The notes below the pieces were generated by a model. It had not been told where the DNA came from, ran no database searches, and was given only the letters and a program-made list of their open reading frames with translations. Below, in pieces: positions 7,493 to 48,865 of a stretch of 64,000 bases of DNA. This DNA comes from Frigoribacterium endophyticum (GTDB taxonomy: Bacteria; Actinomycetota; Actinomycetes; Actinomycetales; Microbacteriaceae). Each line of letters starts with the position of its first letter. Position 1 is the first letter of the stretch. The stretch is from contig NZ_JAAOYV010000001.1 in the NCBI RefSeq assembly GCF_011759585.1, positions 1,488,001 to 1,552,000 on the forward strand, read 5' to 3'. Position numbers and translations under genes: made by a program.

Positions 7493-7510
7493 GCCCGGCT
7501 CCGCCTCCCC

Positions 7511-7999: not shown

Positions 8000-8030
8000 C
8001 GAGCGCCGGCCGACGGCGTCAGCGCCGCCG

Positions 8031-8375: not shown

Positions 8376-8509
8376 GGCACACCTCCTTCGTCTCCGTCGA
8401 CGTTAGCGAGGGCGTGCTGGGGGAACGCCCTCGACGAGGCGACGGGTGTCGGCGAGGCGACCCGCGACTCCCCCCGTCCGGCCGCACCGGGCACAGCCCC
8501 GGGGCGAGG

Positions 8510-9433: not shown

Positions 9434-9440
9434 GGGGACG

Positions 9441-9446
9441 AGCCTA
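9441..9446 (-). promoter_or_regulatory. -10 box of leaderless SseB-family gene
   Basis: TAGGCT on the minus strand, seven bases before the ATG at 9433, leaving no room for a ribosome site. Confidence 0.55.
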
Positions 9447-9469
9447 CGACGGGTGGGCGGCGGCCTCGG

Positions 9470-9991: not shown

Positions 9992-9993
9992 AA

Positions 9994-12727: not shown

Positions 12728-12734
12728 GGGCCCC

Positions 12735-12740
12735 ACGCTA
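12735..12740 (-). promoter_or_regulatory. -10 box of the effector operon
   Basis: TAGCGT on the minus strand, seven bases before the GTG at 12727; the mRNA would be leaderless. Confidence 0.5.
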
Positions 12741-12886
12741 ACGGCATCTCGGCCCCAGCGGAACGATCGGTCCGTTTCTCCACCTCACGGCGTACGCGCA
12801 GGTCACCCGCCCCTCCCCCGAGAGGAGTCGCGGGCCTGCACCCACAAGCCGTCCCCGACGCCCCCGGCTCGGCCTCGATCCCGCCC

Positions 12887-12892
12887 TACCGT
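12887..12892 (+). promoter_or_regulatory. -10 box of leaderless gene at 12899
   Basis: TACCGT six bases before the ATG at 12899, with no ribosome site between. Confidence 0.55.
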
Positions 12893-12898
12893 CGCCGC

Positions 12899-13453
12899 AT
12901 GATCATCGAAGCCGGGTACGACCTCCACCAGATCCTCATGCCGACCGTCCACGAGAGCCGGGCACGGGGCGAGCACGGGCCCCACGACAGCCCGCTGTGG
13001 CTGCTCACCCTCGACCGGGACCTGCGGGTGCAGTACCTGGTTCAGGTGACGCCCGACATGCGCGGCCGCCCCGCCGACGAGAGGGAGGCCATCGCCGCGG
13101 CGCTCGACTGCAGCGACCTCTTCGCGGTGAGGTGGCTCGTCTTCGCCTGGTGGTCGCCGACGGTCGCTCCGGTCGACGAGAGCTGGCAGCGCCACCTCGA
13201 CGACGAGGCCCTGAGGGCCGCCCCGGAGCTGGCCGACTACGAGCTGCTCGGCACCGTGGTGTACGACGACGAGGGCTTCGCGTGCACCTTCCCGCGGTTC
13301 AGCTTCTGCGACTACGACGAGGGGCTGCCCGTCGCGGCGGTCATCCACGGCCGGCACCCGCGCGGCTGCGACTGCCTCGCCTGCGAGCAGGCGCGAGTGC
13401 GGCGCGCCGAGCGGGAGGAGCGGCGAGAGGCGGCACATGGGGGCTCGGCCTGA
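12899..13453 (+). CDS. Hypothetical protein with C-terminal Cys cluster
   Basis: 184 residues, no family recognised. The body is acidic and Trp-rich with WLLTLDRDLRVQYLVQV and RWLVFAWWSP. The end carries GCDCLACEQARVRRAERE, a possible CxCxxC metal site followed by a basic helix. The start is supported by a leaderless-type -10 box. Its TGA overlaps the possible CTG start of the Vsr endonuclease gene, so the two are probably one transcript. Confidence 0.7.
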   Translation: MIIEAGYDLHQILMPTVHESRARGEHGPHDSPLWLLTLDRDLRVQYLVQVTPDMRGRPADEREAIAAALDCSDLFAVRWLVFAWWSPTVAPVDESWQRHLDDEALRAAPELADYELLGTVVYDDEGFACTFPRFSFCDYDEGLPVAAVIHGRHPRGCDCLACEQARVRRAEREERREAAHGGSA

Positions 13454-13896
13454 CCAGCCCGCCGCGTCCGGCCGCGGGCGACTTCGACTCTGACGACGAG
13501 ACCCGGCGCCGCATGAGCCGGATCCGCCGTCGTGACACGCGCCCCGAGCTCGCTCTGCGACGGGGGCTGCACGCGAGGGGCTGGCGGTACTTCGTGGACC
13601 GCCCCGTGGCGGGGGTCTCACGGTGTCGCCCCGACCTGCTCTTCCCGCGCCTCCGCGTCGCCGTCTTCGTGGACGGCTGCTTCTGGCACTTCTGCGTCGA
13701 GCACACGCACCTCCCGATCGCGAACGCGGCCTACTGGCACGCCAAGCTGCTCGCCAACCGGCGGCGCGACGCGGCCCACGACCACGAGCTGAGGTCGGCG
13801 GGGTGGGCGGTCGTCCGGGTGTGGGAGCACACGCCCCCGGCCGAGGCGATCGACGCCGTGGAGGCGGTGCTGCGGCGCGCGGTCGCGGGCGTGTGA
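13450..13896 (+). CDS. vsr: Very short patch repair endonuclease (Vsr)
   Basis: The core reads MSRIRRRDTRPELALRR, then PDLLFPRLRVAVFVDGCFWH, and WAVVRVWEH, all typical of Vsr, which nicks DNA 5' of a T:G mismatch produced by deamination of 5-methylcytosine. The catalytic Asp in CRPDLLF and the zinc-type Cys/His residues (GCFWHFC) are present. The first in-frame ATG (13513) lies inside the usual N-terminal helix region. A CTG at 13450 overlapping the previous stop (CTGA) gives the more typical length of 148 residues. No cytosine methyltransferase gene is nearby. Confidence 0.85.
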   Translation: MTSPPRPAAGDFDSDDETRRRMSRIRRRDTRPELALRRGLHARGWRYFVDRPVAGVSRCRPDLLFPRLRVAVFVDGCFWHFCVEHTHLPIANAAYWHAKLLANRRRDAAHDHELRSAGWAVVRVWEHTPPAEAIDAVEAVLRRAVAGV

Positions 13897-13920
13897 CGCG
13901 AGCTCGAGGCCGCGACGACG

Positions 13921-13978
13921 CACCACTTCTTCGCAGGGGAACCAGGCCGCGGCGTGGTTCGGGTGCGAGAACGTGGTG
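13921..13978. repeat. 58-base palindromic repeat, copy 2 (intergenic)
   Basis: An imperfect palindrome with outer arms CACCAC/GTGGTG, inner TCGCA/TGCGA and core GAACCA and CCGCGG. It has the same plan as the copy at 4901 and lies 24 bases after the Vsr stop codon. Confidence 0.85.
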
Positions 13979-14015
13979 CCGCTCGGGCAGGTAGGACGGC
14001 CGCTCGCCGAGATGA

Positions 14016-14071
14016 ACCCCGTTCTCGCAGGGGAACCCTGCCGCGGCGGGGTTCCCGTGCGAGAACGGGGT
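14016..14071. repeat. 56-base palindromic repeat, copy 3 (intergenic)
   Basis: A nearly perfect palindrome: 26 of 28 base pairs match, with arms ACCCCGTTCTCGCA and TGCGAGAACGGGGT around a CCGCGG centre. It sits 37 bases after copy 2, so two elements stand in tandem between the Vsr gene and the 3' end of the convergent helicase gene, where they may also stop transcription. Confidence 0.9.
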
Positions 14072-14162
14072 GTCCCGCGGGCCGGAGCGGCGCGCGCCGC
14101 CCGCGGGACACCCACGGGCCAGCACGGCGCGCGCCGCCGGGCCCACCCGCCTCGCGCGCGCG

Positions 14163-17100
14163 TCAGCGCCGCTCGACCAGCTCGATGAACCGCGACAGCG
14201 TGCCGAGCCCCGCGATCGACGTGGGCATCGAGCTGGCGAGCGCGGGCGAGTGCACGAGGTACGCCGCCCACTGCGCGCGGCTGATGCCGACGTTGAGCCG
14301 GTTGGGCATGAGCAGGAAGTCCAGGCCGCGCGGGATGTCGGCGGCGCTCGACGCGGCCAGCGAGACGATCGCGACCACCGCCTCCCGCCCCTGGAAGAGA
14401 TCGACGGTGCCGACCGTCGTGCCGGTCAGGCCCGCGGCGTCGAGCGCGTCGCGGATCACGGCACCCTGCGCGTTGTACGGCGCGACGACGATCACGTCGT
14501 CGTCCGTCAGCCGACGCGTGCCGTGCTCGTCCGACCACTCCCGACCGACGCCCGACCGGGCGAGGTCGACCACGCGCTCGGCCTCCTCGACCGACGACGT
14601 CGTGTTGCCCGCGTGCTCGACCGGTACGGCGTGCAGCCCGGGTTCGACGCCCTCGAGGTGCCGCTCGGGCGCCCGCGACTCGAGCGCGCCCTCGTACGAG
14701 AGCCGCGACACCGGCGCCGTCACCGCCGGGTGCATCCGGTACGTCCGCGACAGGAAGTAGCCGAGCTCCGGCGGCAGCACGTCGTGCCCGTCGGCGAGCC
14801 AGCCGAGCGACGACGCGTCGACGGGCTCGGGGTGCGAGCCCTGGCTGACCTGAGGCAGCTGCTGCGGGTCGCCGAGCAGCAGCAGGCGCTGCGCGGCGAC
14901 GGCCGACGCGATCGTCGGCGCCAGCGAGAACTGACCGGCCTCGTCGACGACGAGCAGGTCGAGCGAGTGCCGCGCGACGTAGTCCGGGTTGGCGAAGGTC
15001 CAGGCGGTGCCCCCGACGACTCCGCCGGTCTCGCCCGGGCCGGTGAGGAACTCGGCCAGGCCGGCCCCGTTCTTCACGGGCGTCCACGCGGCGGCCTCGA
15101 CCGCCTCCGCGCTCGCTCCGCTCTTCGGCACCTTGACGACCAGCGCGGGGTCGACCCCCTTGCCGACCACCGCCTCCAGGAAGTTCTCCACCACCGCGTG
15201 CGACTGGCCGACGACGCCCACGCGCCAGCCGTGCTCCCGCACCAGCCGCGCCACGACCGTCGACCCGACGTAGGTCTTGCCCGTTCCGGGCGGGCCCTGC
15301 ACGGCGAGGTACGACCGCTCGAGGCCGAGCAGCGTCGCCGTGACGGCGCCCACGGTGTCGTCGCCGACGACGGGCACGACCCCGCCCCGCGGAGGGACGC
15401 GACGCAGCAGGTCGAGCACCGCGTCGTCGACGAAGGCGGGCAGGCCGTCGAGCACCGAGCGACCCCACTCGGAGATCGCCGCGGGCTGCGGGGCCGCGCG
15501 CGGCGGCGCCGCCGGCGTGATCGCGAGCGGGAACGCCTCGTGCGGGTCGGCGCCCCCGGGCAGCGACTCCTTCACGAGCATCACGACGCCGTCGTGGTCG
15601 GCGTCGACGTCGAGCACCGCGACCCGCGACGTCGCGCCGCGCAGGCCCGGCCCCGACGCCGTGATCGAGGGAGGCAGCGGGGCGTCGTAGACGAGGTGCG
15701 GCGCTCCCCCGGGCGTCAGCCGGCTGCCGGGCGCGAGCGAGCCCCTCAGCCGCAGGTCGCGCGACAGGGTGCGGGCGCGCGGCAGCTTCTCCCAGTCGCG
15801 GACCACCTGGGCCTGCTCGACGACGAAGACGTCCCGCGTGTCGGCCCATTCGTCGAGCGGGTCGCGGAGCCGCCCGAAGTGCTCCTGCCAGAACGTCTTC
15901 GCCTCGCGCCGGTGGTAGTCGATCGCGGCCGCGGCGAGCGCGAGGGCCGTCTGGTCGGGCGTGCGGTCGAGCGGGTCGACGTCGGCGAGCAGGGCCGACA
16001 GCTCGACGAACACCGGGTCGGGCTCGGCGCGCACGCGCTCGTCGTCGACGAGGGCGACCGCCTCGTCGGTCGTCGACCCGGGCGGCACGAACGACAGCAG
16101 CCAGTCGCGCAGCCGGAGCGTCGACCGGCAGTCGTACTCGTTGTAGTCGGCGACCTGGTCGAGCCGCGCCTGGCCGGCCGGGTCGCCGGCCCGCACCGCC
16201 GCGATCGCCTCGACGTAGGCGGTGATGCTGTCGGCGCCGTTGAGGACCCCGTCGCCGTCGCGGAGGTCGCCGCCCATGTAGAGCGGCTCCAACTTCTTGA
16301 TCGAGTAGCTGCGCGAGCCGACGACGAGAGCCTTGCGCACCACGGGGTAGAGGTCGACGAGCACGCCGTCGCGCAGCAGGTCGTCGACCTCCTCCTCGCC
16401 GACGCCGTGCCGGGCGGCGAGCGAGAGCAGGTGGGTCCGCTCGTAGGAGGCGTAGTGGTAGACGTGCATGCCCGGGTGCGCCGCCCGTCGCTCCCGCACG
16501 AAGGCCAGGAAGTCGACGAGCGCCTGCCGCTCGGCCCGGAGGTCGTGCGCCCAGAAGGCGGTCGAGCGAGCCTCGACGTCGACCAGCCCGAAGAGGTAGT
16601 CGAGGCCCCAGGTGCCGCCGTCGCCCTCCGTGTACAGCGGGTCGCCCTCGAAGTCGAAGAACACGTCGCCGTCGTCAGGGGCGGGGATCGCCGCGAGCGC
16701 CCCGGGGTCGACGAGGCGCACCTCGGGCACGCCGCCCTCGCTGGCGACCTGCAGCTGCGCCTGGGCGCGCAGCCGCGACAGGGCGGCCCCGCCCACGCCC
16801 GGCACGCCTCCCGTGCTCCGGGCGAGCGCGTCGATGCTGTCGACGCCCGCGGCGATCAGCGCGGCCCGCTGCCCGAGGCTCAGCCCGGCGACGAGCACGA
16901 GGTCGCGGTGCGCCTCGACCTGCGCCGCGCACTGGGAGCACCGGCCGCAGGCCGTCACCCCGGGTGCGCCCCAGGGCAGGGCCGAGGAGGCGCGCTGCCG
17001 TCGTTCGACCGCGTCGCGCAGCCGAGACCGCTGGGCCCGGTGCACGGGGGCGATGTCGGCGAGCTCGTGCGTCGACCGCGACCCGTCGCCCAGCACCAGG

Positions 17101-17594
17101 TGCACCTGCGCCCCCACCGGCACCCCGAGCGCCGCGATCTGCTCGGCGTAGGCCGCGAGCTGGAGGAGGGCGGGGATCTTCGCGTGCCGGGCGAGCTTGG
17201 TGTCGTAGACCTCGTACTCGCCGGCGTCGTTGCGCACGAGGAAGTCGGAGAAGCCGATGAAGGTCGGGTCGTGGAACGTCGCCTGGTAGAGCACCGGCAC
17301 GCCGTCGCGCATCGCCTGCTCCGCGGCGGCCGCCGCCGCCGGGTACCCCTCCCGGGACGGGCGCTCGAACTCGACCACCTCGTGGCTCGCGCGCAGCTGC
17401 TCGAGGAAGCGCACCTCGTGGTCGTCGCCCATCCGCGCCGTCCGGTCGAGCATGGCGTCCGACACGGCGTCGATCCGGTCGATGCGCCCCAGGGCGGCGT
17501 CGAGCCGCCGGAGGAACGCCCACTCGCACGCCGCCCAGGTGGTGAGGTCGGACGGGCTGGTGACGACGAGGTCGGTGTCGGGGTCGATGTAGAT
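14163..17594 (-). CDS. TM0106-family RecB-like nuclease fused to Upf1-type helicase
   Basis: About 1143 residues. The N-terminal third matches RecB/Cas4-like nucleases (VYDTKLARHAKIPALLQLAAYAEQ core) with a Cys cluster CGRCSQC. The middle is an RNase H-like domain (DVFFDFEGDPLY). The last 430 residues are a superfamily 1B helicase with Walker A GPPGTGKT (near 768), DEAGQF (near 883), GDPQQLPQ and DLFQGREA. Such proteins are predicted DNA repair or defence nuclease-helicases. No in-frame ATG, GTG or TTG precedes the conserved start; a GAGGAGG site stands five bases before ATC at 17594, used here as the tentative start. Confidence 0.82.
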   Translation of the reverse strand: MYIDPDTDLVVTSPSDLTTWAACEWAFLRRLDAALGRIDRIDAVSDAMLDRTARMGDDHEVRFLEQLRASHEVVEFERPSREGYPAAAAAAEQAMRDGVPVLYQATFHDPTFIGFSDFLVRNDAGEYEVYDTKLARHAKIPALLQLAAYAEQIAALGVPVGAQVHLVLGDGSRSTHELADIAPVHRAQRSRLRDAVERRQRASSALPWGAPGVTACGRCSQCAAQVEAHRDLVLVAGLSLGQRAALIAAGVDSIDALARSTGGVPGVGGAALSRLRAQAQLQVASEGGVPEVRLVDPGALAAIPAPDDGDVFFDFEGDPLYTEGDGGTWGLDYLFGLVDVEARSTAFWAHDLRAERQALVDFLAFVRERRAAHPGMHVYHYASYERTHLLSLAARHGVGEEEVDDLLRDGVLVDLYPVVRKALVVGSRSYSIKKLEPLYMGGDLRDGDGVLNGADSITAYVEAIAAVRAGDPAGQARLDQVADYNEYDCRSTLRLRDWLLSFVPPGSTTDEAVALVDDERVRAEPDPVFVELSALLADVDPLDRTPDQTALALAAAAIDYHRREAKTFWQEHFGRLRDPLDEWADTRDVFVVEQAQVVRDWEKLPRARTLSRDLRLRGSLAPGSRLTPGGAPHLVYDAPLPPSITASGPGLRGATSRVAVLDVDADHDGVVMLVKESLPGGADPHEAFPLAITPAAPPRAAPQPAAISEWGRSVLDGLPAFVDDAVLDLLRRVPPRGGVVPVVGDDTVGAVTATLLGLERSYLAVQGPPGTGKTYVGSTVVARLVREHGWRVGVVGQSHAVVENFLEAVVGKGVDPALVVKVPKSGASAEAVEAAAWTPVKNGAGLAEFLTGPGETGGVVGGTAWTFANPDYVARHSLDLLVVDEAGQFSLAPTIASAVAAQRLLLLGDPQQLPQVSQGSHPEPVDASSLGWLADGHDVLPPELGYFLSRTYRMHPAVTAPVSRLSYEGALESRAPERHLEGVEPGLHAVPVEHAGNTTSSVEEAERVVDLARSGVGREWSDEHGTRRLTDDDVIVVAPYNAQGAVIRDALDAAGLTGTTVGTVDLFQGREAVVAIVSLAASSAADIPRGLDFLLMPNRLNVGISRAQWAAYLVHSPALASSMPTSIAGLGTLSRFIELVERR

Positions 17595-17694
17595 GGCGGC
17601 CTCCTCGGCGGGCGGTGCGGGCGGTGCGGGCGGTGCGGTGCGGGGCGGTGCTGACGCGCACGTCGGGCCCGGGCGGCGACCCGGCCGTGCTCGA

Positions 17695-17700
17695 ACGCTA
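17695..17700 (-). promoter_or_regulatory. Probable -10 box upstream of the nuclease-helicase gene
   Basis: TAGCGT on the minus strand in the gap after the LacI gene, about 100 bases before the tentative start. It suggests the helicase gene has its own promoter. Confidence 0.4.
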
Positions 17701-17751
17701 GCGGGCGCGACCGACAGCGGGGGCGACTCCCCCGGGCTCCCGGAGCCGCGG

Positions 17752-18774
17752 TCAGCGCGTCGAGCGTCCGTGCAACAGCCGGGGCGCGAGCGTGACGCGG
17801 CGGGCGCCGCCGGAGTCGTCGCGGTCGCCGCTCGCCAGGGCGTCGAGCAGCAGCCGCACGGCCTCCCGGCCCATGGCGGGCCACGGGTGGCGGAGGGTCG
17901 TGATCTCGCGCTCGTCGTCGCCCTCGACCGACGACACGTCGAGCAGGCTCGCGACCTGCACGGCCCCCGGCACGTCGACGCCGTTGAGGCGGAGCACCGT
18001 GACCAGGCCGTGCGCCACGTCGTCGTTGGCGCAGACGATCGCGTCGAGCCGCGCGAGGTCGCCGCTCGCGACGAGCTCGTTCGCGGCGGCGACACCGCCG
18101 GCGAGCTCGGCCCCGGCCGGTCGCGCGCCGTCGAACCGCACGCCGCGCAGCTCGCACGAGGCCCGCACGGCCGCGATGCGGCGGGCGTCGGCGGGGTCGG
18201 CCGGCGACAGGCCGACGGTCACGAGCTCCGTCGCCCCGCCGTCCGCGAGGGCGCCGACGAGCAGGTCGGTCGCCCGGTTGTCGTCGAGGCCCACCGAGTC
18301 GGTGCCGTCGCCGAAGATGTGGCGGCCCACCTGCACGACGGGCACGCGGTCGGCGGCCGCGACGGCGTCACGGCTGACCTCCTCCGTCGGGGGGCAGATG
18401 ACGAGGCCGTCGACGCGGCGGCTGAGGAGCGACTCGACCGTGCGGGCGTCGTGGTCGTCGCCCTCCGCGGAGTACCGCAGCACCAGCGAGAGCCCGGCGT
18501 CGTCGAGGGCCTCGCTGACCGACTCGATCAGGGCGGAGAGGAAGCCCGTCGTGTACCGGGGCAGGATGAGCCCGACGGTCTCGGTGCGCTGGCTCCGCAG
18601 GGCGCTGGCGACGGCGTTGTGCCGGTAGCCGAGCTCGGTGATGGCCTTCCGCACCGCGCGGGCCCGGGCCTCCGAGACGTGCTGGGCCCCGGAGAGCACG
18701 CGTGAGGCGGTCGCGATCGACACCCCGGCCTCCCGGGCCACGTCGACCAGGGTGGGGACGGACGTCGGGCTCAC
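17752..18774 (-). CDS. LacI-family transcriptional regulator
   Basis: 340 residues with the N-terminal helix-turn-helix TLVDVAREAGVSIATASRVLSG, hinge helix NAVASALRSQRTETVG and a periplasmic-binding-type sensor domain. Its GTG start overlaps the stop of the creatininase-family gene by four bases, so it is the last gene of a three-gene operon. LacI-type operator sequences lie before that operon and before the divergent BMP-importer operon, so it probably represses both until the substrate binds. Confidence 0.93.
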   Translation of the reverse strand: MSPTSVPTLVDVAREAGVSIATASRVLSGAQHVSEARARAVRKAITELGYRHNAVASALRSQRTETVGLILPRYTTGFLSALIESVSEALDDAGLSLVLRYSAEGDDHDARTVESLLSRRVDGLVICPPTEEVSRDAVAAADRVPVVQVGRHIFGDGTDSVGLDDNRATDLLVGALADGGATELVTVGLSPADPADARRIAAVRASCELRGVRFDGARPAGAELAGGVAAANELVASGDLARLDAIVCANDDVAHGLVTVLRLNGVDVPGAVQVASLLDVSSVEGDDEREITTLRHPWPAMGREAVRLLLDALASGDRDDSGGARRVTLAPRLLHGRSTR

Positions 18775-38060: not shown

Positions 38061-39758
38061 GTGGAAGAACCGTCGGGGCACGACGCCCTCAGCCGCGACG
38101 GCGTGCGCGAGGTGTTCGGCACCGACCCCACCTGGGCCCTGCTGCGCAGCTCGAACAGCCGCTGGATCCTCCCCCTCTTCTCCCGCCACCTCGAGCGCGC
38201 CGAGGGCCCCGTCTCGGCCGACTGGTTCCACCAGGCCGTCGCGGAGGCGCTGGCCGAGAACGCCGCGGAGGCCGCGGCCGGCGAGACGGCGAGCGCCGAC
38301 GCCACCGCCACGACCACGACCCCCACCACGGACACCACCCCCGGGGAGGCGCCCGCCGGCCCCGCAGAGACGGCCGACCTCCCCGAGGCCAAGACCCCGG
38401 CCGACTACTGCCGCGGCTGGGTCGACAGCCGGTGGCTGATCCGCACCCGCGCCTCCGGCGAGGAGGACGGCCAGGCCGCCCGGGCCCGCTACCGCCTCTC
38501 GCCGCACGCCCTCAAGGCGCTGCGCATCGTCCGCGAGCTGGCCGAGGCCGACAACGCCGTCTCCGAGGCCCGCTTCGGCAGCATCGCGCACGCCGTCCGC
38601 CAGCTCGCCGGCCTCGCCGACCCCGACCCGGCGTCGCAGGTCGCCCGGCTCGACGAGCAGATCGCCGAGCTGCAGCGCCGCCGCGACGAGGTCGAGCGGC
38701 ACGGCCCCGTCCCGGCGACCGCCGACGTCGTGTCGCGCCAGGTGCGCGAGGTCGTGCGGCTGACGGCGTCGCTGCCCGAGGACTTCCGCCAGCTCAGCGC
38801 CATGGTCGAGCAGCGCCACCGCGAGGTCGCCCGCCGTGCGACCCACGAGCACGTCGGCAAGGGCGCGCTCGTCGAGCAGTACCTCCGCGAGAACGACCTG
38901 CTCGAGCAGACGCCCGAGGGCCGTGCCTACCGCGGCTTCGCCCAGATGCTCTCGTCGCGCGAGATCGACGTGATGCGCGCCGACATCGACAAGGTGCTCT
39001 CGCAGCCCGGCGCCGCCGAGCACCTCACCGAGCGGCAGCGCGAGCAGCTCGAGCAGCTGATCTCGTCGCTGCTCGCCGAGGAGCAGTCCGTGCAGGAGAC
39101 GTACGGGCGTTGGACGTCGTCGCTCCGCCGCTTCCTCAGCCGGTCGGGCGCCGAGAAGCACCAGCGCCTGCTCACCCTCGCCGAGCGCGCCCTGCACGCC
39201 GGCGCCGCCTGGGCCGAGCGTCGCCCCGGCGCCGCGGTGCTGCCCGAGGACGTGCTCGGCCTCGGCCCCGTCGACGTCGTCGACGTCAGCCAGGTGCAGC
39301 TCTGGAGCGAGCGCGGCCGCCCCACCGTCGAGGTGCGCGTGGCCGAGGGCGACGCCGCCCTGCCCGCCGCCGACCGCGCCGCGCTCCGCCTCACCGCGGG
39401 CACCAGCCCCGCCGCGGTCGCCGCGACGATCGACCGCCTGCTCGACGAGGGCGACGGCCGTGACGAGGTGACGAGCGCCGACGTCTACCGCGCCACCGAG
39501 CCCGAGTTCCGTCGCCTCACGCTCGTGCTGAGCATGCTCGACCTCGCCGTCGAGCGCGGCGTCGTCACCGACGAGACCGAGTCCGTCGTCCTCACCCCCG
39601 ACGACCCGTCCGGCACCGGGGCCGGAGCACCCCGAGGAGGCGCCCCCCGCGAGGTCACGCTGCCCCGGTTGGTCTTCACCCGGGACGCACCCCCGCCCGG
39701 CGCCGACTCCGCCGCACCCGCCGCCCCCGCCCGCACCCTCCAGGGAGACCCCGCATGA
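38061..39758 (+). CDS. jetA: Wadjet subunit JetA (DUF3375, MukF-like kleisin)
   Basis: 565 residues of the DUF3375 family: YRLSPHALKALRIVREL, the coiled stretch QVARLDEQIAELQRRRDEVER, and LSSREIDVMRADIDKVL. In Wadjet/MksBEF complexes this kleisin bridges the SMC heads. A Thr/Ala-rich insert (about 70-110) is unusually long, and a Pro/Ala-rich tail follows. The GTG is supported by AGGGAGG. Its stop overlaps the jetB start by four bases. Confidence 0.92.
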   Translation: MEEPSGHDALSRDGVREVFGTDPTWALLRSSNSRWILPLFSRHLERAEGPVSADWFHQAVAEALAENAAEAAAGETASADATATTTTPTTDTTPGEAPAGPAETADLPEAKTPADYCRGWVDSRWLIRTRASGEEDGQAARARYRLSPHALKALRIVRELAEADNAVSEARFGSIAHAVRQLAGLADPDPASQVARLDEQIAELQRRRDEVERHGPVPATADVVSRQVREVVRLTASLPEDFRQLSAMVEQRHREVARRATHEHVGKGALVEQYLRENDLLEQTPEGRAYRGFAQMLSSREIDVMRADIDKVLSQPGAAEHLTERQREQLEQLISSLLAEEQSVQETYGRWTSSLRRFLSRSGAEKHQRLLTLAERALHAGAAWAERRPGAAVLPEDVLGLGPVDVVDVSQVQLWSERGRPTVEVRVAEGDAALPAADRAALRLTAGTSPAAVAATIDRLLDEGDGRDEVTSADVYRATEPEFRRLTLVLSMLDLAVERGVVTDETESVVLTPDDPSGTGAGAPRGGAPREVTLPRLVFTRDAPPPGADSAAPAAPARTLQGDPA

Positions 39759-40660
39759 CCGCCGCCCCGACCGACGACCTCCGCCCGGCCGACGCAGCGG
39801 CCGACGCGACGCCCGATACGACGGCCGACGTGGCGCTCGACGCCGACGACGCCCCCGCCCGCCCCGTCTCCGACGAGCTCCCCCTCGCCGGCCGCAAGGC
39901 CCTGGTCACGCTGATGACGCACCGCTTCATCAGCCGGGCCAAGCAGAAGGAGGCGTGGGCCGGCCTCCTGGCGCACGAGCCGGAGATCCGCGCCCGCCTC
40001 GCCGAGATGTTCCTCGAGCTCGAGGTCGACCGCGGCTACGAGGTCGCCTTCAAGCGACAGGCCGGCGGCGACGACGCCCCCGTGCTGCTGCGGCGCGAGA
40101 AGCCGCTGTCGCGCGACGCGTCGTTCCTGCTGATCTTCCTGCGCCGCGAGCACGCCTACGCCGACGGAGACGACGACGCGGTCGTGGTGTCGCGCGACCA
40201 GGTCGCCGAGTTCCTCGGCCGGTTCCACGACGACACCGCCCACGACGAGGTCCGCGCCCTGCGGCGCGTCGACGCCGCGATCGCCGCGATGATCGCCCGC
40301 GACCTGCTCGAGCCCGAGCCCGACGACCCGTCGCTCTTCGTCGTCGCCCCCGCGATCGTGCCGCTCGTCCGCCCCGAGCAGCTGCGGCACTTCGAGCGCC
40401 TGTACCTCGAGGCCGCGGGCGCCGAGCCGGAGGTCGGCGCGTCCGCGGCGAGCGCCGGAGCACCGGGCGAGCTGGACGAGCCCGACGAGCTGACCGACTT
40501 CGACCCCGAGCTCGACGCGGGTGACGACCTGACCGAGCTCGACCCCGACGCCGAGCCCGACGACGGCGCGCCCGCCCCCGCCGACGCGCCCCGCGCCTCC
40601 GACACGGCCCTCGACCTGCCGCTCGACCTCCCCCTCGACCCGGAAGCAGACCAGGCATGA
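39755..40660 (+). CDS. jetB: Wadjet subunit JetB (DUF4194, MukE-like)
   Basis: 301 residues with the DUF4194 winged-helix core (LVTLMTHRFISRAKQKEAWAG, FLLIFLRREHAYADGDDDAV). It binds the kleisin in the SMC complex. The last 75 residues are an acidic, Asp/Glu/Pro-rich tail not usual in the family. Overlaps both neighbours by four bases. Confidence 0.92.
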   Translation: MTAAPTDDLRPADAAADATPDTTADVALDADDAPARPVSDELPLAGRKALVTLMTHRFISRAKQKEAWAGLLAHEPEIRARLAEMFLELEVDRGYEVAFKRQAGGDDAPVLLRREKPLSRDASFLLIFLRREHAYADGDDDAVVVSRDQVAEFLGRFHDDTAHDEVRALRRVDAAIAAMIARDLLEPEPDDPSLFVVAPAIVPLVRPEQLRHFERLYLEAAGAEPEVGASAASAGAPGELDEPDELTDFDPELDAGDDLTELDPDAEPDDGAPAPADAPRASDTALDLPLDLPLDPEADQA

Positions 40661-43600
40661 CCCCCGCCTCCCCCGCCGACGCGCCCCGCGCCTCCCGCAC
40701 GCCCGTCGAGACCGGCGCCGAGTCCGCCGCCCCCGCGGCCCGCCCCGCGACCGCCGCCGACGTGACAACCTCCACCACGCCCACGCCCCCCGTCACCCCC
40801 GCGCTCGACGTCGACGTCGAGCCCGAAGACGCGCCCGACCTCGGCATGTTCCACTCGGGCCAGTACCGCATCGAGCTCGTGCAGCTGCTCAACTGGGGCA
40901 GCTACGCGGGCCTGCACCGCATGCCCGTCGGGCGGGGCGGCATCGCCATCCTCGGCCCGACCGGGCGGGGCAAGTCGACCGTGCTCGACGCGATGGCCGC
41001 GGTCATCATGCCGAACCCGCAGGAGTTCAACCGGGCCGCCCGCGACGACTCGCGCCAGCGCTCCGAGCGCACCGTCTACAGCTACGCGCGCGGCAAGACC
41101 GACGAGGTGCGCGACGCCGACTCCGACCGCACGACGACGCGGTTCCTGCGCCCGCTGGGCGAGTCGTTCGCGAGCGGCGCCGCGATCACCTGGAGCACCG
41201 AGCTCGGCGAGACCCTCACCGCCGTGCGCCTCGCCTGGATCGGCCCCGACACCGCCAGCCAGGACGACGTCACGCAGGCGAGCGTCTACCTGCTCGTGCG
41301 GGGGCGCTTCGACCTCAGCCGGCTGACCGACGTCCGCCGCGACGAGACGAGCACGTCGCCACTGACGAAGAGCTCGCTGACGCGGCTCGTCGACCCGGCG
41401 CACGACCTCGTCACCTACTCGCAGCCCGAGCTCCGCGTGCAGCTCTGCGCGCGGCTCGGCATCGGCGGCAGCGACGAGTCGCAGCTGAAGGCCCTGACGC
41501 TGCTGCGGCGGGCGCAGGCGTCGAAGGGCGTCTTCTCGATCGACGAGCTGTTCAAGCAGTTCGTGCTGACGCAGCCGAAGGCGCTCTCCCGGTGGGAGAC
41601 CACGCTGGCGACCTACCGCGAGGCGTCGCAGCTCTACGACGTGTTCGAGACGACGCGGCGGAAGCTCGACGTGCTCGAGCCGGTGCCCGGCCTCGCCGAG
41701 CGCTGGCGCAGCGCGGGCGACGACGCGACCGCGAAGCGCCGCCTGCTGGCCGGCGGCGACGACGAGCCGCGTCGGCTCGACGTCTGGCTGGCCGAGGCGG
41801 TCGGCAGCTGGGTCGGCGGCGAGGTCGACCGGGTGCAGACCGAGAAGCGCGGCCACGTCGAGACGAGGAGGCGCGCCGCCGAGGCCGCGGAGGCCGCCCT
41901 CCGTGCCCGTGAGCAGGCCCTGGCGCAGATCGCCGACCTCGGCGGCGACCCCTCGCACTCGCTCCGGGAGCAGGTGCGCTGGGCCGGGGAGGCGCTCGGA
42001 CGCGTCGAGAAGGAGCACCGCCGGTTCGCCGCCCCGCTCGAGGGCGTCGGCGAGCCGGTGCCCACGACCGCGGACGAGCTGGAGTCGCTGCGCACGCGGG
42101 CGACGGAGCTCGCGGCCGAGGAGGCGGCGGCCCGCCGCGAGCACGACGAGCTGCGCGGCGACCTCGCGGCCCGGATCGCCGAGACGCGGCGGTCGGTCGG
42201 CGAGCGCCAGCGCGAGAAGGAGTCGTTCGAGCGGCGCCGCAGCAACGTGCCCGACGACGCGGTCGAGCGACGTCGGCGCATCGCCGACGGCACGGGCGTG
42301 CCGGTCGCCCGGCTGCCCTACGCGGGCGAGCTGTTCGAGGTCGCCACGGAGCACCGCGACTGGACGACCGCGATCGAGAGGGTGCTCGGCGACCTGGCCA
42401 CGCACCTCCTCGTCGACCCCGATGACTTCGACGCCGTGCGCCGCTTCGTCGACCGGGAGGACATGCGCGGCCGCGTCACCCTCGTGCCCGCGACGCCGGG
42501 CCTGACGCCGACGCGCACGCCGCTCGCGCGCACCGTGCCGTCGATGCTCGTGTTCGACGAGGCGAGCCCGTTCGTGGGCTGGCTGCGCGACGAGGTCGTC
42601 GACGACCGCAGCGTGCTCTGCGTCGACGACGCGTCGGCGCTCGACGACCCGCTGCCCGTCGGCGCGAGGGGCGCCGTGACGCGCTCGGGCCTCCGCACCG
42701 GCTCGCGTCGTCGGGTGACGAAGGACGACCGGCGGGTCCGCTCCTGGATCGGCCTCGACAACACCGGCCGGGTCGCCGAGCTGACGGCCGAGATCACCGC
42801 CCTGACGGAGTCGCTCGACGCGGCGCGCGCGGAGTGGGACGCCGCCGAGACGGTCGCCAGCGCCCGCCGCACGGTCGTCGAGACCGTGGCGCGCGCCGCC
42901 GCCGTGGAGTGGTCGGACGTCGACCCCGCTCCGGCGCGGGCCCGCCTCGCCGACCTGCAGGCGCAGCTCGAGCGGGTCGCCGTCGAGCGCCCCGAGGTGA
43001 CGGCGCTGCAGGCCGAGGCCGCGGCGCAGGACGAGGCGCGGCTCGAGGCCGTGCGTCGCGGGGCCGAGGTGCAGCAGGTGCTCGACCAGCTCGAGGCGAC
43101 GCACGCGACGCTGGTCGACATCGAGGACGCGTTCAGCGACGCCTCGGGCGCCGACCCGCTGACCGACGACGAGCGGGTGCTGCTCGCGCCGCTGCCGTTC
43201 GCGGCGCCGCGCGAGGTGGCCGACGTCGAGCGCACGCGCCGTGAGGCGGCCGCGCAGCTGCGGGCGCAGGTCGACGCGCACGACCGTGAGCGGACGCAGC
43301 ACGAGCTCACGCTCGAGCTCGTCTTCACGCGCTACCTCGAGCTCGACCCGAACGCCGGCTTCGACGCGTCGATCGAGAGCCTGCCGGCCGTGCTGGCGAT
43401 CCACCGCACGCTGGTCGACGACGACCTGCCCCACGCGAAGCAGCGCTGGCTGGCGAAGGCCGGGGCGAGCGTGGGCGACAGCCTGCGGGCGCTGCTGGTG
43501 CAGATCGAGGAGGACGGGCACGTCATCCGTCGTGGCGTCCGGCCGATCTCGCAGGCGCTGGCCGCGATCGAGTTCCGGCAGGGGTCGACGCTCGACATCG

Positions 43601-44274
43601 AGCCGCGGCCGGTGTCGAACAGCGACCTGGCGGAGTTCAAGCGGACGCTGCGCGAGCACACGGGCGGCGGTGCCGGCGGCGGTTCTGCGGCTGGCGCGGG
43701 CGGCTCTGCGGCCTCGGCCGTCGATCCACGTGACCCCGCCGAGATCGAGCGCCGCTTCCTGCGTCTGCGGCGCGACCTGGCCAGCCTCGAGGAGCGCTCG
43801 AAGTCGGGTGAGGCCTGGCGTCGCCGGGTGCTCGACGCGCGCGAGCACTACCAGTTCCGGGCGATCGAGACGAGGCGTGACGGCACGCAGATCGTGCACG
43901 AGGGAGTCGCGGGCAAGTCAGGCGGGGAGGGCCAGGAGCTGATCGCGTTCGTGCTCGGCGCCGCGCTGCGCTTCCGGCTCGGCGACGGCACCGACCGGGT
44001 GCCGACCTACGCGCCGATCGTGCTCGACGAGGGCTTCGTGAAGGCCGACACGGAGTACACCGGCCGGGCGCTCTCGGCGCTGCGGTCGCTGGGCTTCCAG
44101 CTGGTCGTCGGGGCCCCGCGAGACAAGGTGAACGCGTTCGAGCAGCACGTCGAGAGCGTCGCCTACATCTCGAGCGATCCGGTGAACCCCGAGCTGTCGC
44201 GCATCTACCCCCTCACGATCCGCGAGGCGATGGAGGTCGAGCGCCACGGCCTCGACCCCGCCGCGCTCGGCTAG
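40657..44274 (+). CDS. jetC: Wadjet subunit JetC (SMC-like, MukB/SbcC-type ATPase)
   Basis: 1205 residues. A disordered leader of about 60 residues precedes Walker A GPTGRGKST (near 100). Long coiled coils (about 370-500 and 700-870) surround a hinge-like region. The C-terminal head has the signature SGGEGQE (near 1087) and Walker B IVLDEGF (near 1121). JetC loops and extrudes DNA; in complete Wadjet the JetD TOPRIM nuclease then cuts small circular plasmids. No jetD follows. Confidence 0.93.
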   Translation: MTPASPADAPRASRTPVETGAESAAPAARPATAADVTTSTTPTPPVTPALDVDVEPEDAPDLGMFHSGQYRIELVQLLNWGSYAGLHRMPVGRGGIAILGPTGRGKSTVLDAMAAVIMPNPQEFNRAARDDSRQRSERTVYSYARGKTDEVRDADSDRTTTRFLRPLGESFASGAAITWSTELGETLTAVRLAWIGPDTASQDDVTQASVYLLVRGRFDLSRLTDVRRDETSTSPLTKSSLTRLVDPAHDLVTYSQPELRVQLCARLGIGGSDESQLKALTLLRRAQASKGVFSIDELFKQFVLTQPKALSRWETTLATYREASQLYDVFETTRRKLDVLEPVPGLAERWRSAGDDATAKRRLLAGGDDEPRRLDVWLAEAVGSWVGGEVDRVQTEKRGHVETRRRAAEAAEAALRAREQALAQIADLGGDPSHSLREQVRWAGEALGRVEKEHRRFAAPLEGVGEPVPTTADELESLRTRATELAAEEAAARREHDELRGDLAARIAETRRSVGERQREKESFERRRSNVPDDAVERRRRIADGTGVPVARLPYAGELFEVATEHRDWTTAIERVLGDLATHLLVDPDDFDAVRRFVDREDMRGRVTLVPATPGLTPTRTPLARTVPSMLVFDEASPFVGWLRDEVVDDRSVLCVDDASALDDPLPVGARGAVTRSGLRTGSRRRVTKDDRRVRSWIGLDNTGRVAELTAEITALTESLDAARAEWDAAETVASARRTVVETVARAAAVEWSDVDPAPARARLADLQAQLERVAVERPEVTALQAEAAAQDEARLEAVRRGAEVQQVLDQLEATHATLVDIEDAFSDASGADPLTDDERVLLAPLPFAAPREVADVERTRREAAAQLRAQVDAHDRERTQHELTLELVFTRYLELDPNAGFDASIESLPAVLAIHRTLVDDDLPHAKQRWLAKAGASVGDSLRALLVQIEEDGHVIRRGVRPISQALAAIEFRQGSTLDIEPRPVSNSDLAEFKRTLREHTGGGAGGGSAAGAGGSAASAVDPRDPAEIERRFLRLRRDLASLEERSKSGEAWRRRVLDAREHYQFRAIETRRDGTQIVHEGVAGKSGGEGQELIAFVLGAALRFRLGDGTDRVPTYAPIVLDEGFVKADTEYTGRALSALRSLGFQLVVGAPRDKVNAFEQHVESVAYISSDPVNPELSRIYPLTIREAMEVERHGLDPAALG

Positions 44275-44361
44275 CCCGCCGAGTGGTCGCCATCCGCGCC
44301 TCCCGCCCCTCTGGAGCCGCAGTTCGCGCCCACTCGCCCCGCGCCTCCCCTGTCCTCTCCC

Positions 44362-44489
44362 AATTTGAGAGAGATCTGTCCGCCAAGTGAACAGGCGTCC
44401 CGTCCCCTCCGAATTTGAGAGGGATCAGCGCCTGACGCACCGGTGAGCCTGAAGGAGTCGCGGGTCGGCACCCGGATCCCTCTCACTTT
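44362..44489. promoter_or_regulatory. Three copies of a 15-base motif before the 44512 gene
   Basis: AATTTGAGAGAGATC (44362-44376), AATTTGAGAGGGATC (44412-44426) and, inverted, the complement of AAAGTGAGAGGGATC (44475-44489). The third copy ends ten bases before the -10 box. The AT-rich core stands out in GC-rich DNA. Probably a repressor or activator binding array. Confidence 0.65.
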
Positions 44490-44499
44490 CCCGAGACCC

Positions 44500-44505
44500 T
44501 AGGCT
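44500..44505 (+). promoter_or_regulatory. -10 box of leaderless gene at 44512
   Basis: TAGGCT six bases before the GTG at 44512, next to the third copy of the 15-base motif. Confidence 0.6.
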
Positions 44506-44511
44506 CGGCCC

Positions 44512-44943
44512 GTGCTCTTCTCCCCGCCGCCGGAACCCCCGCCGTCCGACCCGGCGCTGGTGGCGCCGGGCCTCTTCCGAATGACCGTCCCGGGTGTGCC
44601 GGACGCCGTGAGGGGCTGGCTCTCGATCAGGCGGTCGTGGGAGTGGACCGTCGAGGGCCCCTGGTGGAGGCGACGCGACGTGCGGCCGGAGGTCAGGGCG
44701 GAGTTCGACGTCGTCTGGAACGGCGACTTCACGACCCTCGACCTCTTCCCCGGTGACGACGCCGACCACTGGTTCGACGGAGGCGGCGACGAGCTCGCGG
44801 CTGACGAGCTCGCCGAGATCGAGCAGGGAACGTTCACGATGAGGGGTGTCGTCTTCGACCTCGAGTTCGTCGACCCCCGGGATGATCCCGAGGCCTGGAT
44901 CCGCTGGTGGTACTTCCTGCCCCGTGCGACCCCCGCCGCCTGA
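44512..44943 (+). CDS. Hypothetical acidic, Trp-rich protein
   Basis: 143 residues, no signal or membrane segment, no family recognised. It is rich in Trp, Asp and Pro (WEWTVEGPWWRRRD, DADHWFDGGGDE, DPEAWIRWWYFLP). The leaderless promoter and three upstream motif copies imply tight control. It is codirectional with the Wadjet genes but has its own promoter; it shows none of the JetD TOPRIM motifs. Confidence 0.7.
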   Translation: MLFSPPPEPPPSDPALVAPGLFRMTVPGVPDAVRGWLSIRRSWEWTVEGPWWRRRDVRPEVRAEFDVVWNGDFTTLDLFPGDDADHWFDGGGDELAADELAEIEQGTFTMRGVVFDLEFVDPRDDPEAWIRWWYFLPRATPAA

Positions 44944-46263: not shown

Positions 46264-46623
46264 TCATCGCGAAGGATCGTCCACGGCGAACACCCGCGCA
46301 TAGTCCGCTTGCACAAGTGGCCACACAGAACTTCGACCTGCGCTCGCGCTCACCGCGGCGTCTGCGAGAGGCCCGAACAGCACGAACTCATGCGGGATCA
46401 GCCGACCAGCCCGGTCGCACCTTCCTTCAGGGTCGGAGAATCGCAGGGCGACCACACCGCCGTCGTGCTCACACACCTCCGGCGCATCCCCGACAGCACC
46501 GAAGGCGCGATCATAGGCGACGAGAGGATCGTCAAGATCGGCCGATCTGAGGAAGCGGAAACCCCAACGGGCGCCGCGCGTGGCCCAGATGAACCTGTCT
46601 TGATCCGTTGCAGTCCGATTCAC
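46264..46623 (-). CDS. Small protein coupled to GTPase
   Basis: 119 soluble residues (WATRGARWGFRFLRSADLDDPL, VVALRFSDPEGRCDRAGR, HEFVLFGPLADA). The GTG overlaps the GTPase stop by four bases and AGGAG is placed for it, so it belongs to the same operon and is probably a partner subunit. It recalls adaptors encoded beside TRAFAC-type GTPases in predicted conflict systems, but I cannot name a family. Confidence 0.72.
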   Translation of the reverse strand: MNRTATDQDRFIWATRGARWGFRFLRSADLDDPLVAYDRAFGAVGDAPEVCEHDGGVVALRFSDPEGRCDRAGRLIPHEFVLFGPLADAAVSASAGRSSVWPLVQADYARVFAVDDPSR

Positions 46624-47771
46624 TTGAGACTCCTGGATAGGACGCCCTTGTCCTCCGCCGCGTCGAGGTCGAGCTGGAAGCCAGAGAGCACGGCGGTCAA
46701 GAAGTCGTGACGACTCTTGGCTTGTTCGTGCACGGAGTGGACCTTTCCCTGCGACATGTCGGCGAGCTTGTCGAGAGCACTGGCCCCGGCCACCCTCTGC
46801 AGGAGTCCGAGAGGCCCTGGCAGTGTGATCTTGCCCAAGAACGTCACCGCGAGCGGTGCAGCGACGTAGGTCAACCGCTCGGCGACCTTGCTGCCCTTCG
46901 CGAAGCGGGCAGCCCACCGGATGTGCCGCGAGAAGGGGAGCATCGCCGCTAGCGGCAAGATCAGATCGACACCCACCCTCTTCTCGACGTCGATCGAGCC
47001 CGCGTCGAAGGCAGCGGACGACAGGACGACGAAGTCTTCACCGATTGACATTGCCTCCGGAGCCTCGGCGAATTCCGAGATCGTCTTTCCGAGCTCGACG
47101 AGGTCCTCGCCGCCCTTCTCGATGACGAGATCGCGGAAGTCGGTCACGGTCACGCCCGGGAGAAGATCGGCCTTGGAGAGCGCCACGACCCATATCCGGG
47201 GAAAAGTGACGAGTCGGCCCTTGTCGCCGACGACGTCGTCCCGCAGCTTGATGAGACCGTTGCGCAGGTTGGAGAAGAGCGACTTGAGATACCGCTCCTC
47301 GTGACCGTCGTTCTCGATGAGCTGTTGACCGTCGACCAGGACGAGCGCCACATCCGAATTGAGGAGCGACTTGAAGGTCTCAACCCGCCTCTGCGCCTCT
47401 GTGTCGCCGCTGGGTTCCTGTTCGAACCATTCTCCGGGGTAGTCGTGCCAGATCAGGCGGAGATCTTCCGCGACGCCCGCCTTCTTGGCCTTCGAAGCTC
47501 CGGATTTCTTGCGCTTGATGGAGAACGAGTACGACTCGCCCTTGAAGCGGTTAGCCGGCGGGACTGCGCCCGCCCTCTTCATTCCGAGGTAGTTCTGGTG
47601 CAGACGCAAGCCCTGCGCTGAGTCATCCGCAACGACGTTGAAAAGGCTCTTGCTGATGAACCGTGGTTCCTGACTCGTGCCGTAGAACGACGAGAGCAGG
47701 ACTGTCTTGCCGCTCCCACTGCCCCCGAAGACGGCGATCTGCTGCTCACGAGCCACTTTGTTGAGTTCCAT
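46620..47771 (-). CDS. TRAFAC-type GTPase of a predicted conflict system
   Basis: 383 residues: P-loop GGSGSGKTVLL (16-26), switch element WHDYPGEWFEQ, and a G4-like SKADLL preceded by WVVAL. The C-terminal third has a hydrophobic, possibly membrane-contacting stretch (LTYVAAPLAVTFLGKITLPGP). Such DO-GTPase-like proteins occur in GTPase-associated defence loci. Base composition is lower in GC than in flanking genes, suggesting transfer. The divergent neighbour is an Mrr nuclease. Confidence 0.75.
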   Translation of the reverse strand: MELNKVAREQQIAVFGGSGSGKTVLLSSFYGTSQEPRFISKSLFNVVADDSAQGLRLHQNYLGMKRAGAVPPANRFKGESYSFSIKRKKSGASKAKKAGVAEDLRLIWHDYPGEWFEQEPSGDTEAQRRVETFKSLLNSDVALVLVDGQQLIENDGHEERYLKSLFSNLRNGLIKLRDDVVGDKGRLVTFPRIWVVALSKADLLPGVTVTDFRDLVIEKGGEDLVELGKTISEFAEAPEAMSIGEDFVVLSSAAFDAGSIDVEKRVGVDLILPLAAMLPFSRHIRWAARFAKGSKVAERLTYVAAPLAVTFLGKITLPGPLGLLQRVAGASALDKLADMSQGKVHSVHEQAKSRHDFLTAVLSGFQLDLDAAEDKGVLSRSLK

Positions 47772-47932
47772 GACCTGAACCTATGTCAGGAAGACGACCG
47801 GGCAACGCATCCAGCCAGGGCCCGTCGTCGTCCACGCCGCAGTTGATCTCGCCGACGCAACGTCAACCCTGGGCGCGCGGCGCTACGTCATGCTGTCGGG
47901 TCGCACGCCCGTCAATGCGGCAGAGTACTGAC

Positions 47933-48865
47933 GTGTCCACTTCTGACGATGCTGTCTCTACGGTTCCCATCTGGCCCGAATTCGTCGTGCCTGTGCTCCG
48001 AGTGTTGGAGTCTGGTCGCACCTTGCATCGAAAGGACGTCGTCGAGGCTGCGGCCGACCTGGCTGGCCTCAGCAGCGCTGGACGAGCCGAGATGCTCAAC
48101 TCTGGGGGAACGCGCTACGAGCAGCGAGTGGGTTGGGCGATCAGTCACCTGACGAAGGCGGGGTGGATAAGTCGTCCCGAGCGCGCGCACTACGCCATCA
48201 CGGAGGAGGGTCACCGCGGACTCGCCAAGTACCCCGGCGGCTTCGACTACGCACTCGGCAAGGCGGTCTTCGCGCCGTTCTGGCCTGAGCGCAGAAACTC
48301 TGCGACGGCGCCGGAGCTGCAACCCGATGTGCAGGACGCCGTAGACATCCTGGATCCCATCGAGCAGATCGCCGACGGCATCAGCCGCATCGAGGAAGAG
48401 GTCGGGATAGATCTGCTCGATCGGCTCCGTGAAAGCCACCCCGATTTCTTCGAACAAGCGGTCGTCGATCTGCTCCTCGCCATGGGCTACGGCGGCGCTG
48501 AACAGCGTGGCACGCGCATCGGCGGCTCCGGCGACGCCGGCATCGACGGCATCATCGATCAAGACGCGCTGGGGCTTGACCGCATCTATGTCCAAGCGAA
48601 GCGGTACAAGGAGGGCAACAACATCGGCCGGGAGACCATCCAGGCCTTCGTGGGTGCACTACAGGGCTTTGGGGCAACACGAGGCATCTTCCTGACGACG
48701 AGCGCTTTCACGCCGCTGGCGCAGACATACGTCGAGAACGTGCAGTCACGGGTCATCTTGATCGACGGGAAGAGGCTCGTCGCCCTGATGATCAAGTACC
48801 GCGTCGGCGTGCAGGTCAAGAAGACCTTCACTGCCGTCGAGATCGACGCGGACTTCTTCGACTGA
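47933..48865 (+). CDS. mrr: Mrr-type restriction endonuclease (type IV)
   Basis: 310 residues. The N-terminal winged-helix module (FVVPVLRVLESGRTLHRKD, RYEQRVGWAISHLTKAG) and C-terminal nuclease (MGYGG, GGSGDAGIDGIID, IYVQAKR, RGIFLTTS) align with Escherichia coli Mrr through its whole length, including the catalytic D-QAK residues. It cuts methylated or otherwise modified DNA. The GTG at 47933 was chosen by comparison with Mrr; an ATG at 47915 would add six residues. The region is less GC-rich than the core. Confidence 0.93.
   Translation: MSTSDDAVSTVPIWPEFVVPVLRVLESGRTLHRKDVVEAAADLAGLSSAGRAEMLNSGGTRYEQRVGWAISHLTKAGWISRPERAHYAITEEGHRGLAKYPGGFDYALGKAVFAPFWPERRNSATAPELQPDVQDAVDILDPIEQIADGISRIEEEVGIDLLDRLRESHPDFFEQAVVDLLLAMGYGGAEQRGTRIGGSGDAGIDGIIDQDALGLDRIYVQAKRYKEGNNIGRETIQAFVGALQGFGATRGIFLTTSAFTPLAQTYVENVQSRVILIDGKRLVALMIKYRVGVQVKKTFTAVEIDADFFD

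What the first reader, a model, noticed from the sequence alone, without database searches (positions are those of the whole stretch)
38061..44943. Wadjet/Mks SMC operon without the JetD nuclease
jetA, jetB and jetC are intact and coupled by 4-base overlaps, but the next gene is a leaderless acidic Trp-rich protein under its own motif array; no JetD (DUF3322/DUF2220, TOPRIM) is encoded anywhere in the window. Either the nuclease is elsewhere, or this complex works as a MukBEF-like condensin, or another protein such as the 44512 product replaces JetD. JetA has a long Thr/Ala insert and JetB an acidic tail, both unusual.
Basis: partly seen in the sequence, partly recalled or inferred. Interest (0 to 1): 0.72.

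Follow-up and report, generated by a model that had tools for sequence, protein, structure and literature searches.

The report
Wadjet SMC operon that lost JetD
A bacterial anti-plasmid machine has lost its DNA-cutting subunit but kept its DNA-looping motor in all sixteen sampled genomes of one genus, which suggests that the motor now does another job, most likely helping to organise DNA.

Summary
jetA, jetB and jetC are open, overlap by 4 bases, and no jetD lies in the window. The genome holds one JetD, about 34 kb beyond jetC, but it ends a second operon of another lineage.

All 16 sampled genomes of the genus (Frigoribacterium) have this JetD-less operon; 14 have no JetD at all. It lies 47-69 kb from scpB in all 14 genomes where both share a contig.

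The JetC sister group of Leifsonia plus Frigoribacterium (12 rows) carries jetD in 12 of 12. In Leifsonia, 1 of 6 loci has jetD at the orthologous spot. JetD and JetC fall into the same three groups, and a single loss in the Leifsonia/Frigoribacterium clade is rejected. In a class sample, 29 of 51 jetB loci lack a nearby JetD. JetD was lost repeatedly while jetABC was kept.

The 44512 ORF is absent from the 15 other genus loci, so it is no JetD substitute. The JetA insert and JetB tail are genus traits.

Best reading: a JetD-less, MksBEF-like SMC complex, probably an auxiliary condensin beside Smc-ScpAB; a non-cutting plasmid silencer remains possible. JetD-less Wadjet/Mks operons are already described: a new member of a known kind, with good natural JetD+/JetD- pairs.

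The parts
38061..39758 (+). jetA (kleisin, DUF3375; MksF-like), GTG start
38253..38399 (+). Ala/Thr-rich low-complexity insert in JetA (approximate bounds, by eye), variable across the genus
   Evidence: sequence; comparison
39755..40660 (+). jetB (KITE, DUF4194; MksE-like) with acidic tail as in the other genus JetB compared
40657..44274 (+). jetC (SMC ATPase, MksB/MukB-like)
   Evidence: matches solved JetC chains, E 1.5e-57
40954..40980 (+). JetC Walker A, GPTGRGKST (invariant G100, G103, G105, K106, S107 in alignment A1)
43915..43935 (+). JetC ABC signature, KSGGEGQ
44011..44049 (+). JetC Walker B/D-loop, APIVLDEGFVKAD
   Evidence: translation; invariant D1124, E1125
44512..44943 (+). 143-aa acidic Trp-rich ORF; NOT part of the system (no match in 15 other genus jetABC stretches)
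   Evidence: low-confidence model

Best explanation
The operon encodes a complete SMC motor (JetC dimer, JetB KITE, JetA kleisin) that descends from a type I Wadjet JetABCD system and has lost the JetD (MksG) nuclease. Shown here: absence of JetD, retention of open jetABC across the genus in one chromosomal neighbourhood, and several losses in related lineages (by trees). Inferred: JetABC still binds and extrudes DNA in an ATP-dependent way but cannot cut it. It most likely serves as an auxiliary MksBEF-like condensin, helping chromosome organisation or segregation beside Smc-ScpAB, as MksBEF does in Pseudomonas aeruginosa.
For: jetABC is open with ATPase motifs. DUF4194 is found in 16 of 16 genus genomes, JetD in 2 of 16, both in a separate operon. 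The JetD-less jetB lies 46.6-68.9 kb from scpB in 14 of 14 genomes where both are on one contig. ScpB is found in 16 of 16. The 12 JetC rows that are sister to Leifsonia/Frigoribacterium have JetD in 12 of 12. One of the 6 Leifsonia loci in a capped list has jetD at the orthologous spot: 1158 bp against 30 bp in an otherwise collinear locus at 91% DNA identity. A single loss in that clade is rejected (p-AU 3.8e-88). JetD groups W, ii and i are each one clade, as are their JetC. dN/dS is below 1 in 42 of 42 comparisons. No shared neighbour replaces JetD: 8 genus loci share downstream TctA/TctC transporter genes, the next gene is convergent in 13 of 15 genus loci, and the same-strand next genes of D- loci that have a Pfam family belong to unrelated ones. 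Precedent: PMC10586767 (section 7, passages) and PMC7617805 (passages) describe JetD-less Wadjet-group members; PMC7485682 (abstract, passages) describes MksBEF in chromosome segregation.
Against: No functional data. jetABC evolves faster (dN/dS: jetC 0.29-0.50, jetA 0.37-0.57, jetB 0.50-0.70) than most of five control genes (0.11-0.43), which is unlike a typical housekeeping machine. Above genus level the occurrence is patchy: DUF4194 in 33 of 149 family genomes. The characterised actinobacterial complex, MksBEFG of C. glutamicum, which has MksG, does not fold the chromosome (PMC7083940, passages).
Confidence: 0.5

Rival explanations
1. Nuclease-free defence: JetABC still recognises small circular DNA, extrudes it and holds it, silencing or mis-segregating plasmids or phage circles without cutting.
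For: JetABC, not JetD, is held to sense DNA shape and size (PMC10586767, passages). Fast evolution. Patchy occurrence above genus. Some genomes hold a D- operon and a JetD (family 4, class 7 genomes).
Against: In 16 of 16 genus genomes and near scpB in 14 of 14 testable, unlike the accessory JetABCD (2 of 16).
Confidence: 0.25
2. A nuclease in trans completes the system: the JetD of the second operon, or an unrelated nuclease.
For: G000 has one JetD about 34 kb beyond jetC and an Mrr-type endonuclease gene at 47783-48862. One class D- locus (L085) has an SbcD-type nuclease gene right after jetC.
Against: 14 of 16 genus genomes lack PF09983, as do the genomes of 15 of 19 family and 22 of 29 class D- loci. 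JetD tracks its own JetC lineage. No shared neighbour nuclease; the Mrr gene has no homologue in the other genus stretches. A nuclease encoded elsewhere was not searched for.
Confidence: 0.13
3. Decaying remnant of Wadjet with relaxed constraint.
For: Higher dN/dS than most control genes; broken relatives exist (jetB of the second G124 copy; a JetD with only part of jetA in G134).
Against: Open jetC and jetB frames in 15 of 15 other genus loci and jetA in 14 of 14 testable; dN/dS below 1 in 42 of 42 comparisons.
Confidence: 0.07
4. The 44512 protein replaces JetD.
For: It lies 237 bp downstream of jetC on the same strand.
Against: No match in the 15 other genus stretches (best E 4.5); no family hit; the single-sequence model (pLDDT 44.6) is uninformative. 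Not searched elsewhere in those genomes.
Confidence: 0.02

Closest known systems
Wadjet type I, JetABCD / MksBEFG / EptABCD
   Same: JetA, JetB, JetC homology over nearly full length, gene order, ATPase motifs
   Different: No JetD nuclease, the part that cleaves DNA
MksBEF of Pseudomonas aeruginosa
   Same: Three-gene Mks complex thought to come from JetABCD by JetD loss, in a species that also has Smc-ScpAB (PMC10586767 passages; PMC7485682 abstract and passages)
   Different: Separate JetD losses in Actinomycetes; function untested here
MukBEF of E. coli
   Same: Member of the Wadjet group that lacks MksG/JetD (PMC7617805, passages)
   Different: MukBEF is thought to have replaced Smc-ScpAB in its hosts (PMC10586767, passages); here ScpB is present in 16 of 16 genomes

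Membership tests
Wadjet type I (JetABCD) | JetA, JetB and JetC of type I in one operon | tested here: met
Wadjet type I (JetABCD) | JetD nuclease (DUF3322 + JetD_C/TOPRIM) in the operon | tested here: not met
   not filed as a Wadjet defence system for this reason
Wadjet type I (JetABCD) | Plasmid cleavage | not testable with these tools
   needs experiment
MksBEF (JetD-less Mks/MukBEF-like condensin) | SMC, kleisin and KITE genes without MksG | tested here: met
MksBEF (JetD-less Mks/MukBEF-like condensin) | Intact ABC ATPase motifs in the SMC | tested here: met
MksBEF (JetD-less Mks/MukBEF-like condensin) | Descent from a JetABCD ancestor by loss of JetD (proposed for P. aeruginosa MksBEF) | tested here: met
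   (by trees; regain in L. shinshuensis by recombination not excluded)
MksBEF (JetD-less Mks/MukBEF-like condensin) | Role in chromosome organisation or segregation | not testable with these tools
   needs Hi-C and genetics
JetB motif reported to contact JetD (IFDR, PMC10586767 section 7) | Kept with JetD, lost without it | tested here: inconclusive
   I did not identify an IFDR motif. An LFxGDxGxL-like stretch before the first KITE helix is absent in the window genus but also in D+ relatives

The most novel reading that the evidence does not exclude
Leifsonia and Frigoribacterium capture the recent, repeated conversion of a plasmid-cutting defence complex into a nuclease-free SMC machine with a new job, a replay of the proposed origin of MukBEF/MksBEF condensins from defence systems. 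JetD presence or absence segregates between otherwise collinear loci of one genus.
Probability: 0.5. Interest if true: 0.7.

Novelty: new member of a known kind. Interest (0 to 1): 0.45.

Why it matters
Whether MukBEF-like condensins arose from defence systems is an open proposal (PMC10586767, section 7). Here JetD loss is repeated, partly recent and comes with JetD+ sister loci, so the change of function can be tested directly: the same motor with and without nuclease, in culturable actinobacteria. It also warns that JetA/B/C hits alone overcount Wadjet defence: 29 of 51 jetB loci in the class sample have no JetD within 8 kb.

Tried and rejected
Rejected: the 44512 protein as JetD substitute; assembly error; the JetA insert and JetB tail as marks of a new function (genus traits).

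Led nowhere: apparent JetD relics in D- loci came from untrimmed JetD frames that overlap jetC; with trimmed queries (E up to 0.1) one hit remained (E 0.08, over 6 kb from jetC). In the Leifsonia/Frigoribacterium D- loci (E up to 0.5) the two perfect hits, 22 and 14 JetD tail residues in L153 and L154, lie in sequence shared by D+ and D- loci, in L154 inside a convergent frame, so I do not count them as relics; the other hits there (E 0.09-0.21, in L129/L155, L138/L147 and L153) are weak and not counted. The JetB N-terminal motif as a JetD-contact test was inconclusive. The PDB search with JetB gave no relative. I ran no fold search on the 44512 model, whose confidence was too low. The JetB profile built from untrimmed frames was unusable for N-termini and was replaced by start-trimmed sequences.

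Rows dropped: G332 (L099, jetC in two frames) from the class tree and; G025 (L057, no jet gene found in the stretch) and G134 (L073, JetD with part of jetA only) from the JetC trees; 7 class DUF4194 rows below the curated cut-off not examined; the 10 weakest of 34 class JetD rows left out of the pairing; 7 of 22 class D+ loci not fetched; 8 of 16 genus JetC used; L169 (like L163) left out. In one search, L189 and L206 end too soon after jetC to judge JetD.

Full report
What is there. The window (G000:C1:1488001-1552000) carries jetA 38061-39758, jetB 39755-40660 and jetC 40657-44274, with 4-base overlaps, matching DUF3375, DUF4194 and SMC-type ATPase families and PADLOC type I JetA/JetB/JetC models over nearly the whole length. 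JetC matches solved JetC chains (E 1.5e-57) and JetA solved JetA chains. Walker A and the signature are intact. No JetD is in the window.

A JetD elsewhere. The genome has one JetD, at C1:1566061-1567161, about 34 kb beyond the end of jetC. It closes a second operon (L002 10486-17182): jetA split over two frames, jetB, jetC, jetD. The two JetC are 29% identical.

The genus. All 16 genus genomes have DUF4194. JetD occurs in 2 of 16, G000 and G399, each in a separate operon. Besides the window, 15 of 15 genus loci show jetC and jetB and 14 of 14 testable show jetA as open frames (one runs off its contig); none of the 15 has a JetD in its stretch. The operon lies 46.6-68.9 kb from scpB in 14 of 14 genomes where both share a contig (coordinates). 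Genes just upstream in the window are shared at 92-97% with G399 and G391. Downstream, 8 genus loci share TctA- and TctC-type transporter genes, whereas the window has the 44512 ORF and other genes instead; that ORF has no match in the 15 other stretches.

Selection. dN/dS (NG86, window against 14 relatives) is 0.37-0.57 for jetA, 0.50-0.70 for jetB and 0.29-0.50 for jetC. Seventeen comparisons of five control genes in the window give 0.11-0.43; one more failed on a stop codon. So the genes are constrained but evolve fast, which weighs against a strict housekeeping role.

How common. In 149 family genomes, 35 jetB loci above the cut-off were paired with JetD positions: 16 have JetD within 8 kb, 19 do not, and 15 of the 19 lie in genomes with no JetD. 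In 246 class genomes: 51 loci, 22 with, 29 without, 22 of the 29 in genomes with no JetD. Of the 27 further class D- loci fetched, 27 have jetA, jetB and jetC signals and none a JetD in 18-19 kb. A JetC alignment search matched more loci than were kept (519 relatives, best 80 kept); of the 80, 21 have JetD, and two of the other 59 (L189, L206) end too soon to judge.

No shared substitute. By a simple GC3 gene caller, the gene after jetC is convergent in 11 of 19 family, 17 of 27 class and 13 of 15 genus D- loci. Of the 20 same-strand next genes, L099 is a piece of jetC; the window's own has no family; of the other 18, 14 hit a Pfam family: CstA, a transposase, a PIF1-like helicase, AraC, SbcD-like, a carboxylase, GNAT, LacI (two), a carboxylesterase, DUF2231, a HAD hydrolase and CsbD-like (two, below the curated cut-off); 4 have none. 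Only one, SbcD-like in L085, is a nuclease, so I see no recurrent replacement.

History. In the class tree (74 JetC rows) one assemblage of 23 rows has JetD in 22, the other of 51 rows in 7; the root between them is weak. If JetD is ancestral in the second, 17 losses are needed, 14 after collapsing weak forks. The named loci changed the picture around the window. Its JetC falls with Leifsonia (6 loci in the kept list, two of them from MAGs), then with a group from Kibdelosporangium, Micromonospora, Umezawaea, Microbacterium, Agromyces and others, 12 of 12 with JetD. JetD sequences form three clades, W, ii and i (99, 100, 98; 13, 13 and 12 rows). Their JetC form the same groups, including six group-ii rows first assigned by identity and then placed by tree. 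The JetD of Leifsonia shinshuensis may be sister to the other 12 W JetD, as descent with JetC predicts (p-AU 0.50), whereas a single loss in Leifsonia plus Frigoribacterium is rejected (p-AU 3.8e-88). Repeated loss is therefore favoured; one loss with regain by recombination in L. shinshuensis is not excluded.

A natural pair. L. shinshuensis (L152) and Leifsonia sp. TF02-11 (L153) are collinear at 91% DNA identity around jetC, except for 1158 bp holding jetD in the first against 30 bp in the second. L. aquatica (L149) has 46 bp there. Leifsonia sp. Leaf336 (L154) has 1533 bp there with an MFS transporter frame on the other strand. The L. shinshuensis JetD has both Pfam domains and keeps the acidic positions shared by at least 15 of the 16 other JetD compared, with changes at four other shared positions, so it looks intact.

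What it does. JetABC is the extruding and sensing part and JetD the cutter (PMC10586767, passages and section 7; PMC10123090, passages, where MksG links to MksF). Without JetD, cleavage by the known route is not possible. Presence throughout the sampled genus, a stable neighbourhood and the lack of a shared substitute partner fit an MksBEF-like auxiliary condensin beside Smc-ScpAB (ScpB in 16 of 16). Fast evolution and patchiness above the genus keep a non-cutting plasmid silencer alive. I put about 0.5 on the first and 0.25 on the second.

Known or new. PMC7617805 (passages) states that MukBEF and several other Wadjet-group members lack MksG/JetD and that the authors surveyed such operons; its supplement could not be read here, so whether it lists these loci is unknown. 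PMC10586767 suggests that P. aeruginosa MksBEF came from JetABCD by JetD loss. So the kind is known. Searches for Frigoribacterium with Wadjet (0 papers) and for phrases about JetD or MksG loss (1 and 2 papers listed) showed no paper on this case in the held library. Papers: PMC10586767 section 7 and passages; PMC10123090, PMC7083940, PMC10512200, PMC7617805, PMC12287153 and PMC10406323 passages only; PMC7485682 abstract and passages.

Noticed in passing
window 44362-44489: Two perfect copies of AATTTGAGAGRGATC 50 bp apart plus an inverted copy with 2 mismatches, just upstream of the 44512 ORF; 0 expected in shuffles, no perfect copy in the 222 loci fetched. Looks like a regulator site array.
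   Followed up: partly
L002 10486-17182 (G000:C1:1560486-1567182): Second operon jetABCD whose jetA is split over two overlapping frames; the relative in G399 (L141) has one open jetA frame. Damage or sequencing error not resolved.
   Followed up: partly
window 46620-48862: A DO-GTPase2 family gene (46620-47771, minus) and an Mrr-type restriction endonuclease gene (47783-48862, plus) between the two jet operons; neither has a homologue in the other genus stretches.
   Followed up: partly
window 14166-18095 (minus) and L130 2500-6333: RNase_H_2 plus AAA helicase protein; its homologue lies upstream of jetA on the other strand in 5 genus loci but about 20 kb away in the window.
   Followed up: no
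L077 (G353) 785-18428: jetA, jetB and jetC separated by about 5-6 kb each, without JetD; the only D- row in JetC group i of the class tree.
   Followed up: no
L073 (G134) 8402-10228: A jetD with only part of a jetA beside it and no jetB or jetC: the opposite kind of decay.
   Followed up: no
L085 (G227) 12027-13343: An SbcD-type nuclease gene begins within the end of jetC in one JetD-less locus, with a weak SMC-like match in the next frame, probably an sbcDC pair; seen in one locus only.
   Followed up: partly
L154 11402-12934: In Leifsonia sp. Leaf336 the place of jetD holds an MFS transporter frame on the other strand.
   Followed up: yes
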